Position numbers and translations under genes: made by a program. From Oscillospiraceae bacterium (GTDB lineage Bacteria > Bacillota > Clostridia > UBA1381 > UBA9506), in contig SVKI01000002.1 in NCBI GenBank assembly GCA_015068555.1, positions 1-64,000 of the forward strand: a stretch of DNA of 64,000 nucleotides, in the 5' to 3' direction. The notes under the pieces were generated by a model. That model saw only the letters and a program-made list of their open reading frames with translations. It had not been told where the DNA came from and did not search any database. Within the stretch, counting starts at the first letter, position 1. Each line of letters starts with the position of its first letter. Below are positions 19,480 through 41,091 of this stretch, one piece after another.

Positions 19480-19556
<77 letters not shown>

Positions 19557-23312: not shown

Positions 23313-23392
23313 GTCTTTTAAATCGGCATCGCTACTACCGATCTTTTTGTCATGGGAAATAATTGCAATGTTTTGACCTTTATGATATAATG

Positions 23393-23600
23393 ATTTCAAG
23401 CGAAGCTTGAAATTGTCGATATGAATTCTGACGAATTCTCGATATGTCTTGCGGACTCGATATGTGCTGTCGCACTCGATATGTCGCTGATGCGACGAGA
23501 ATTCATATCATATCGAGTTTGAGCATAGCGAAAACATATCGATTTTGCGGTAGCAAAAATATCGAGCAAACGAAGTTTGCATATCGACAAAAATTTTGTC
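23393..23600. repeat. Array of short hairpins separated by TCGATAT / ATATCGA linkers
   Basis: TCGATAT at 23416, 23439, 23457, 23476; ATATCGA at 23536, 23559, 23581 and within catatcga near 23510; different perfect small hairpins lie between linkers. Confidence 0.85.
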
Positions 23601-23657: not shown

Positions 23658-24092
23658 ATGAAAAGGAAACTATTAAATCTGATTTGTTGTTTTATGGTCA
23701 TTGTTTTATCTTTTAGCACTTCAGGCTGCAATCGTCAAGAGACTGTGACAGACCTATGGGAAGACGCCATTTACAAAGAAGATGCGGAACTTGGCGGTGG
23801 GGCAAAAACTGTTATGGTAGAAGTTGTTGTTGAAGATAAATCAGTTACATTTACAATTCATTCAGATAAAGCCACGCTTGGAGATGCATTAGTTGAGCAT
23901 AACTTGATTGAAGGCGAGCAAGGTGCTTACGGTCTTTATGTAAAAAAGGTCAACGGTATCACAGCAGATTATGACATCAACAGATGCTATTGGGGCGTTA
24001 ATAAAAACGGCGAAGGTCTTATGAGTGGTGTTGACGCCATAGAGCTTGAAGAAGGTGAGCACTACGAGTTTATCTATGTAAAGCCGGAATGA
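23658..24092 (+). CDS. Small DUF4430 domain lipoprotein
   Basis: Lipobox STSGCNRQ; TFTIHSDKATLGDALVEHNLIEGEQGAYGLYVKKVNGITADYDINRCYWGVNKNGEGLMSGVDAIELEEGEHYEFIYV. Confidence 0.85.
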   Translation: MKRKLLNLICCFMVIVLSFSTSGCNRQETVTDLWEDAIYKEDAELGGGAKTVMVEVVVEDKSVTFTIHSDKATLGDALVEHNLIEGEQGAYGLYVKKVNGITADYDINRCYWGVNKNGEGLMSGVDAIELEEGEHYEFIYVKPE

Positions 24093-39145: not shown

Positions 39146-39430
39146 AAAAAGCCCTCTGCAATCCTATACAGGATACAGAGGACGAAAATATCATTTCCGT
39201 GGTACCACCTCAGTTCGTCGCTATCTCACGGTAGCGACCTTATCAGGTACAAACATACCTTAGTTCTGTGACGGGAACTCCCGTTGCCTCCTACTTAAGA
39301 TGAATCTTGTTCAGTGCACTGCTAACAGAAGGAATTCGAGAAGGACACCCCATTTGCCTCGCACCGACCGGCAACTCTCTCCATGTTCGTTCCAACCTAC
39401 TGGTTTCTGCTCTCCGCATTTAAATTATGT
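39146..39430 (-). promoter_or_regulatory. T-box leader (tRNA-sensing) upstream of paaK-ACT operon
   Basis: Minus strand carries AACTGAGGTGGTACCACGG (T-box), then terminator CCTCTGTATCCTGTATAGGATTGCAGAGGGCTTTTTT; Stem I with AGTA and GAATTCCTTCTG segments. Confidence 0.88.
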
Positions 39431-40874: not shown

Positions 40875-40907
40875 TTTAGAAGAAATACACAAATTTTGAA
40901 AAAACAT

Positions 40908-41067
40908 GATAGAGGTGCGTTATTTATCAGTATGATGCCGCGGTAACAGGAATACGGCATCAGAAAGGAAATGACGCCGAAGTGGTGCGTTCTGTCCTGT
41001 AACAGGCGCATTGCTGGTGCAATGCAAAATATGTCTTGCACTGTCACGAAAGTGGAGCGCTATCTTG
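40908..41067 (+). promoter_or_regulatory. Lysine riboswitch (L-box)
   Basis: gatagaggtgcg...agtatgatgccg...cagaaaggaaatgacgccgaagtgg...gctggtgcaatgcaaaatatgtcttgcactgtcacgaaagtggagcgctatc matches L-box conserved blocks in order. Confidence 0.92.
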
Positions 41068-41091
41068 CTTTAATAAATGATTTATTAAATT

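What the first reader, a model, noticed from the sequence alone, without database searches (positions are those of the whole stretch)
23393..23600. Array of covarying mini-hairpins between TCGATAT and ATATCGA linkers
About 200 bp read as perfect small hairpins separated by a constant 7-mer: ATTTCAAG/CTTGAAAT; GAATTC/GAATTC; GTC/GAC; GTGC/GCAC; GTCGC/GCGAC; then TTTTGC/GCAAAA; GCAAAC/GTTTGC; GACAAAA/TTTTGTC. The linker is TCGATAT in the left half and its reverse complement ATATCGA in the right half, so the whole block is also a large inverted repeat. Stem sequences differ while pairing is kept, which points to selection on structure or to a mechanism that generates hairpin units. It is not a CRISPR: there are no uniform spacers and the repeats are only 7 nt.
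Basis: seen in the sequence. Interest (0 to 1): 0.75.

Follow-up and report, generated by a model that had tools for sequence, protein, structure and literature searches.

The report
Dispersed ladder-RNA element with S23 partner
The block is one copy of a multi-copy genetic element of gut Clostridia whose RNA is predicted to fold into a four-rung ladder with three four-way junctions, and whose longer copies carry the gene for S23, a small protein of unknown function that appears to have evolved together with the rung sequence.

Summary
The block at 23393-23600 is a ~175-nt element. Four left-hand TCGATAT rungs pair with four right-hand ATATCGA rungs, and hairpins sit flush between them, giving a predicted ladder of three perfect four-way junctions. 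The same element recurs at seven or more other loci in this genome and in 40 of 392 genomes of its class, with strong compensatory change: 38 of 67 pairs changed on both sides, and 403 doubly changed cells against 126 in shuffles. Unit number is fixed, so it is not a growing tandem array. Full-length copies carry an S23 four-helix-bundle gene (PF05635, the protein of 23S rRNA intervening sequences) directly downstream. S23 subfamilies and rung sequences correspond exactly: six rung types, each a single clade on the S23 tree. Copies sit just after promoter -10 boxes, tRNA terminators or gene 3' ends, mostly flush with a perfect hairpin. At one locus a sister genome shows the empty site. Best reading: a small mobile element whose RNA ladder is the cis signal and S23 its trans partner; the window copy is non-autonomous. 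Neither binding nor mobility mechanism has been shown.

The parts
23363..23391 (+). sigma-70-like promoter: -35 TTGCAA (23363-23368), 17-nt spacer, -10 TATAAT (23386-23391)
   Evidence: read in sequence; 37 copies of this left-end type have a mean -10 match of 5.65/6 and a mean -35 match of 4.03/6 at 16-18 nt versus 2.58 shuffled
23392..23415 (+). left hairpin hp0 (ATTTCAAGC-GAA-GCTTGAAAT), flush with the ladder
   Evidence: a perfect stem of at least 8 bp ends at the array start in 73/113 copies versus 0.28% of control positions
23416..23422 (+). rung L1 TCGATAT (pairs with R1)
23423..23438 (+). hairpin A GAATTC-TGAC-GAATTC
23439..23445 (+). rung L2 TCGATAT (pairs with R2)
23446..23456 (+). 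hairpin B GTC-TTGCG-GAC
23457..23463 (+). rung L3 TCGATAT (pairs with R3)
23464..23475 (+). hairpin C GTGC-TGTC-GCAC
23476..23482 (+). rung L4 TCGATAT (pairs with R4)
23483..23496 (+). apical hairpin D GTCGC-TGAT-GCGAC
23497..23509 (+). centre segment GAGAATTCATATC, also complementary to L1 plus the 5' arm of hairpin A (12 nt); the complementarity is kept in other subfamilies
23510..23516 (+). rung R4 ATATCGA
   Evidence: tandem GA in 39 of 45 copies
23536..23542 (+). rung R3 ATATCGA
23543..23558 (+). hairpin F TTTTGC-GGTA-GCAAAA
23559..23565 (+). rung R2 ATATCGA
23566..23580 (+). hairpin G GCAAAC-GAA-GTTTGC
23581..23587 (+). rung R1 ATATCGA
23658..24092 (+). host gene downstream: small secreted lipoprotein-like protein with a DUF4430 domain, so the ladder lies in its leader; no S23 gene in this copy

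Best explanation
The block is a solo (non-autonomous) copy of a small mobile genetic element. SHOWN: (i) a ~175-nt ladder fold, four 7-bp rungs separated by three flush four-way junctions plus an apical hairpin, is conserved by compensatory change across genera and families; (ii) copies are dispersed at unrelated loci; (iii) full-length copies carry an S23 four-helix-bundle gene right behind the ladder with its own ribosome-binding site; (iv) each S23 clade has its own rung sequence; (v) one orthologous locus exists empty, with ladder only, and with ladder + S23; (vi) insertion points are just 3' of promoter -10 boxes, tRNA terminators or gene stop codons, mostly flush with a perfect hairpin. 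INFERRED: the ladder is the cis-acting signal of the element, most likely as RNA of the + strand. S23, probably a ring-shaped multimer, binds the repeated rungs and thereby protects, mobilises or maintains element RNA. Solo copies like the one in the window use S23 in trans. Positions behind promoters and gene ends keep the element transcribed and harmless. UNKNOWN: the catalytic step of movement; no transposase or reverse transcriptase family that was tested is consistently present.
For: Fold: z -5.45 RNA, -7.75 DNA. Covariation: A1 97.7% of cells paired, 19 pairs changed on both sides; A3, 45 copies, 96.1% paired, 38 of 67 pairs changed on both sides, 403 cells vs 126 shuffled, slid controls 24-45% paired. 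RNA strand: GU 38 vs AC 17 cells; tandem GA loop in 39/45. Dispersed: family 11/20 genomes, class 40/392, about 80 loci in ruminant-gut Clostridia MAGs, only 2 of 299 in a phylum sample, both of this class. S23: PF05635 E 2.6e-20, PDB 2RLD E 2.1e-23, present in 20/21 array-bearing genomes vs 33/150 in the phylum. Rung-S23 congruence: 6 rung types need 5 changes, the minimum; 0/200 shuffles as low. Empty site at priA-def in one genus. Insertion context. S23p of another species is a homopentamer (cited in PMC4990558).
Against: Only one locus gave a clear empty site, and no excision or transposition has been observed. The window locus itself gave none. No target-site duplication was proved; an rlmD copy hints at one. 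S23 has no known enzyme activity. G001 has ladders but no detected S23. Rung and S23 are linked in cis, so congruent trees alone do not prove binding. Nearly all genomes are MAGs. A3 was fitted to the model's structure, though A1 was not.
Confidence: 0.62

Rival explanations
1. Cis-regulatory leader: the ladder is a 5' UTR structure that controls the downstream gene (S23 binding its own leader, or a host gene such as the DUF4430 lipoprotein), spread by occasional duplication rather than active mobility.
For: Copies start at a promoter with 17-nt spacing and often end right at a ribosome-binding site. The centre segment can pair with the left end instead, so two exclusive folds exist.
Against: Downstream genes are unrelated from copy to copy, and many copies sit after tRNA terminators with no gene start close by. 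The priA-def locus exists without the ladder. Tandem copies occur (L120, L128).
Confidence: 0.2
2. A palindromic MITE of IS200/IS605 type (PATE-like): moved as single-stranded DNA by a Y1 transposase in trans; the left target motif and the matching right-end motif are its cleavage sites.
For: Insertion just 3' of a short motif (TATAAT, tRNA CCA) that recurs at the right end in several families; terminal hairpins; strong DNA fold.
Against: Y1_Tnp is found in only 13 of 21 array-bearing genomes and 10 of 17 near-complete ones, whereas S23 is in 20 of 21. The excess of GU over AC favours RNA. An S23 gene inside the element is not expected.
Confidence: 0.12
3. A retroelement moved by a reverse transcriptase in trans (diversity-generating retroelement or group II intron type), S23 being an Avd-like accessory protein.
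For: S23 and Avd share the four-helix-bundle fold (general knowledge); insertion next to hairpins resembles group IIC intron targets (general knowledge).
Against: RVT_1 was found in only 3 of 21 array-bearing genomes, 3 of 17 near-complete ones.
Confidence: 0.04
4. Chance or low-complexity AT-rich palindromes.
For: None beyond the AT-rich, partly self-complementary rung.
Against: Model matches at E 1e-49, covariation, shuffle and slide controls.
Confidence: 0.01

Closest known systems
23S rRNA intervening sequences (IVS) with an S23p ORF (Coxiella, Leptospira and others; PMC4990558)
   Same: Same protein family (PF05635); structured, selfish-looking element with paired ends. Mobility through the ORF was proposed long ago (Ralph and McClelland 1993, as cited in PMC4990558). 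The Coxiella IVS has heptameric repeats just upstream of S23p.
   Different: Not in rRNA: sits behind promoters, tRNA terminators and gene ends. Has a ladder RNA with subfamily-specific rungs, many solo copies, and a good ribosome-binding site before S23.
MITE/PATE and other dispersed palindromic repeats (BOX, REP, IS200/IS605 derivatives)
   Same: Short, multi-copy, intergenic, foldable, with ORF-less copies.
   Different: Long-range ladder with four-way junctions; the partner gene is S23, not a transposase; no consistent Y1 transposase.
Diversity-generating retroelement Avd
   Same: Four-helix-bundle protein related to S23 that works with a structured RNA (general knowledge).
   Different: No reverse transcriptase in most genomes that carry these elements.
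Structured RNAs in Rfam 15
   Same: Covariation-supported RNA fold.
   Different: No Rfam match even at E up to 1.

Membership tests
23S rRNA IVS element | inserted in a 23S rRNA helix | tested here: not met
   window copy is intergenic; other copies follow promoters, tRNAs, rlmD, priA
23S rRNA IVS element | ORF of the S23/IVP family | tested here: met
   PF05635 behind the ladder in full-length copies; absent from the window copy
23S rRNA IVS element | complementary ends forming a stem | tested here: met
   rung L1-R1, 7-8 bp, plus three further rungs
23S rRNA IVS element | excised by RNase III | not testable with these tools
   needs RNA work
MITE | no ORF, many copies | tested here: met
   solo copies
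MITE | target-site duplication | tested here: inconclusive
   no clean duplication at priA-def; a partial repeat of about 26 nt at rlmD in L098
MITE / PATE | autonomous parent with a transposase (Y1 for PATE) | tested here: not met
   full-length copies carry S23; Y1_Tnp in 13/21 genomes
CRISPR | uniform repeats with unique spacers | tested here: not met
   7-nt rungs, paired left to right, fixed hairpins
Diversity-generating retroelement | reverse transcriptase gene | tested here: not met
   RVT_1 in 3/21 genomes
Known Rfam family | model match | tested here: not met

The most novel reading that the evidence does not exclude
S23 proteins are the trans-acting partners of a previously undescribed class of mobile elements in which a ladder of RNA four-way junctions is the address label and its 7-nt rung the specificity code. 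Insertion either copies, or is guided by, complementarity to the host sequence next to it: at priA-def the host gene end forms the 5' arm of the left hairpin and the 3' arm arrives with the element.
Probability: 0.4. Interest if true: 0.92.

Novelty: new variant of a known kind. Interest (0 to 1): 0.82.

Why it matters
S23/IVP proteins are widespread and their function is unknown; whether intervening sequences are mobile has been open since the early 1990s (PMC4990558). Here the protein comes with a defined, covarying RNA partner whose sequence changes in step with it, which makes binding and mobility directly testable. A natural RNA made of several perfect four-way junctions in a row would also be an unusual structural target.

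Tried and rejected
CRISPR and variable-length tandem array: rejected, the 4+4 rung layout is fixed. Known RNA family: none. Reverse transcriptase or Y1 transposase as the general mobiliser: not consistently present. Empty site at the window locus: flanking genes are not syntenic in relatives. Ladder upstream of generic chromosomal S23 genes (FEDLxVWQ type): not found. Fully automatic rung parsing failed for subfamilies whose first rung is divergent (14 of 51 parsed), so for several of those the ladder was read by eye. An automatic table of left-end against right-end type left many copies unassigned, so the match of right-end motif to target is only suggestive. The two Exiguobacterium pattern hits (L151, L192) have no model match and are taken as chance. 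Literature searches found no paper on S23-linked hairpin arrays outside rRNA, but preprints and most subscription journals were not searchable.

Full report
WHAT IS THERE. Written out, the block is: hairpin 0, then L1-[A]-L2-[B]-L3-[C]-L4-[D]-centre-R4-[E]-R3-[F]-R2-[G]-R1. L is TCGATAT, R is ATATCGA, and the hairpins touch the rungs without spare bases. The predicted fold is a spine of four rungs separated by three four-way junctions. The fold is much more stable than shuffles (RNA z -5.45, DNA z -7.75).

IT IS A FAMILY. The linker pattern occurs 23 times in this genome and in relatives. A covariance model from ten copies finds further copies in this genome, including ones with a different rung. 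It matches 11 of 20 genomes of the family and 40 of 392 of the class. In a phylum sample of 299 it matches only this genome and one other of the same class. A scan of named genomes gives about 80 loci, almost all from Clostridia of the ruminant gut. Two human-gut contigs labelled as phage carry ladders of other rung types with S23.

STRUCTURE IS UNDER SELECTION. On the first alignment, made without the structure, 97.7% of cells pair, 19 pairs changed on both sides, and sliding the partner by one to three columns drops pairing to 24-45%. On 45 copies, 96.1% pair, 38 of 67 pairs changed on both sides, with 403 such cells against 126 in shuffles. This second alignment was fitted to the structure and leans towards it. 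The first base pair of each rung changes between T-A and G-C. One hairpin keeps a tandem GA/GA loop in 39 of 45 copies, and GU mismatches outnumber AC ones 38 to 17, which points to RNA of the + strand. Rung number is constant in most copies. In one short copy (L128, 2276-2408) one left and one right rung are missing together, leaving 3+3 (sequence).

THE PARTNER GENE. In many copies the right end runs into a ribosome-binding site and an S23 gene, confirmed as PF05635 and similar to the solved structure 2RLD. S23 genes occur in 20 of 21 ladder-bearing genomes against 33 of 150 genomes of the phylum. Looking upstream of S23 genes in relatives revealed further ladders with other rungs: GTGATAT, TGAAAT, GCTAAAT, TGAATT. 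On a tree of S23 proteins each of the six rung types is one clade, with the fewest possible changes; a few rows were assigned to a rung type by eye. Because ladder and gene travel together this is not proof of binding, but it is what a specific protein-RNA pair would give. The generic chromosomal S23 genes have no ladder.

WHERE IT INSERTS. Of 113 copies, 73 start flush with a perfect hairpin of at least 8 bp, against 0.28% of control positions. Hairpins differ: one group lies at promoters, with TATAAT immediately before it and a -35 box at 17 nt (37 copies; the window copy is one). Another is the terminator of a tRNA gene. Another is the 3' end of rlmD, where the element supplies the last codons and the stop codon. 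Others are the ends of other genes. Two tandem pairs occur.

EMPTY SITE. Between priA and def in one genus, one genome has no element (G162), one has the ladder alone (G564), one has ladder, S23 and a membrane-protein gene (G267), and one has what looks like a different S23-type element at the same point (G563). Gene names here rest on the reading of the sequence, not on a family search. In the occupied genomes the end of the upstream gene is the 5' arm of the left hairpin, and a complementary 3' arm is present only with the element. Whether this arm is copied from the target or guides insertion is open.

MECHANISM. The most economical reading is a small mobile element with an RNA ladder as cis signal and S23 as trans partner; solo copies such as the window's depend on S23 elsewhere (this genome has one S23 gene, beside another ladder copy). 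The enzyme that moves it is unknown: reverse transcriptase is in 3 of 21 genomes and Y1 transposase in 13 of 21. A purely regulatory leader is the main rival.

KNOWN RELATIVES. The nearest known thing is the 23S rRNA intervening sequence with its S23p ORF (PMC4990558). These elements are not IVS in the strict sense, because they are not in rRNA. They are not MITEs in the strict sense either, because the linked gene is not a transposase. No Rfam family matches.

LIMITS. Almost all data are MAGs; E-values of the model are rough; only one clear empty site was found; nothing was tested at the bench; preprints and much of the literature could not be searched.

Noticed in passing
L272, L274, L277, L278, L284, L285: Another S23 clade (MESPLL/MDSPLL type) sits after tRNA terminators behind a long pyrimidine/purine-rich imperfect duplex instead of a hairpin ladder; a stretch like it follows the hairpin at the priA end in G563 (L315).
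   Followed up: partly
L338, L340; Coxiella IVS in PMC4990558: S23 genes of other phyla are preceded by short tandem repeats (TTAGTGA many times in Bernardetia, GGAAAGATGAAAGT-like in Treponema, GACAGAT in Coxiella); repeats of about 7 nt upstream of S23 may be general.
   Followed up: partly
G099 and G195 (C7, C19): A reverse transcriptase lies next to a weak S23/Avd-like gene, as in diversity-generating retroelements.
   Followed up: no
L041, L115, L116: Separate dispersed repeat GTTGCGTTCATTGCACCATAAATTTCCTTGAATTAATTTTAAACGGTAAATTTATGGTATAAT next to ladder copies in this genome.
   Followed up: no
L044 right flank, L047 left flank: Another palindromic module (TTGACACATACAGAATTTTATTTC...GAGCACTGTGTCAATTGACGGCGTCGC) adjoining ladder copies in two genomes.
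   Followed up: no
L051 2348-2509: Chimeric ladder whose left end is of TGAAAT type and right part of TCGATAT type, behind a GTGATAT-type ladder.
   Followed up: no
window 39175-39423 (-), 40902-41070 (+), 19480-19553 (+): T-box leader, lysine riboswitch and a tRNA (Rfam).
   Followed up: no
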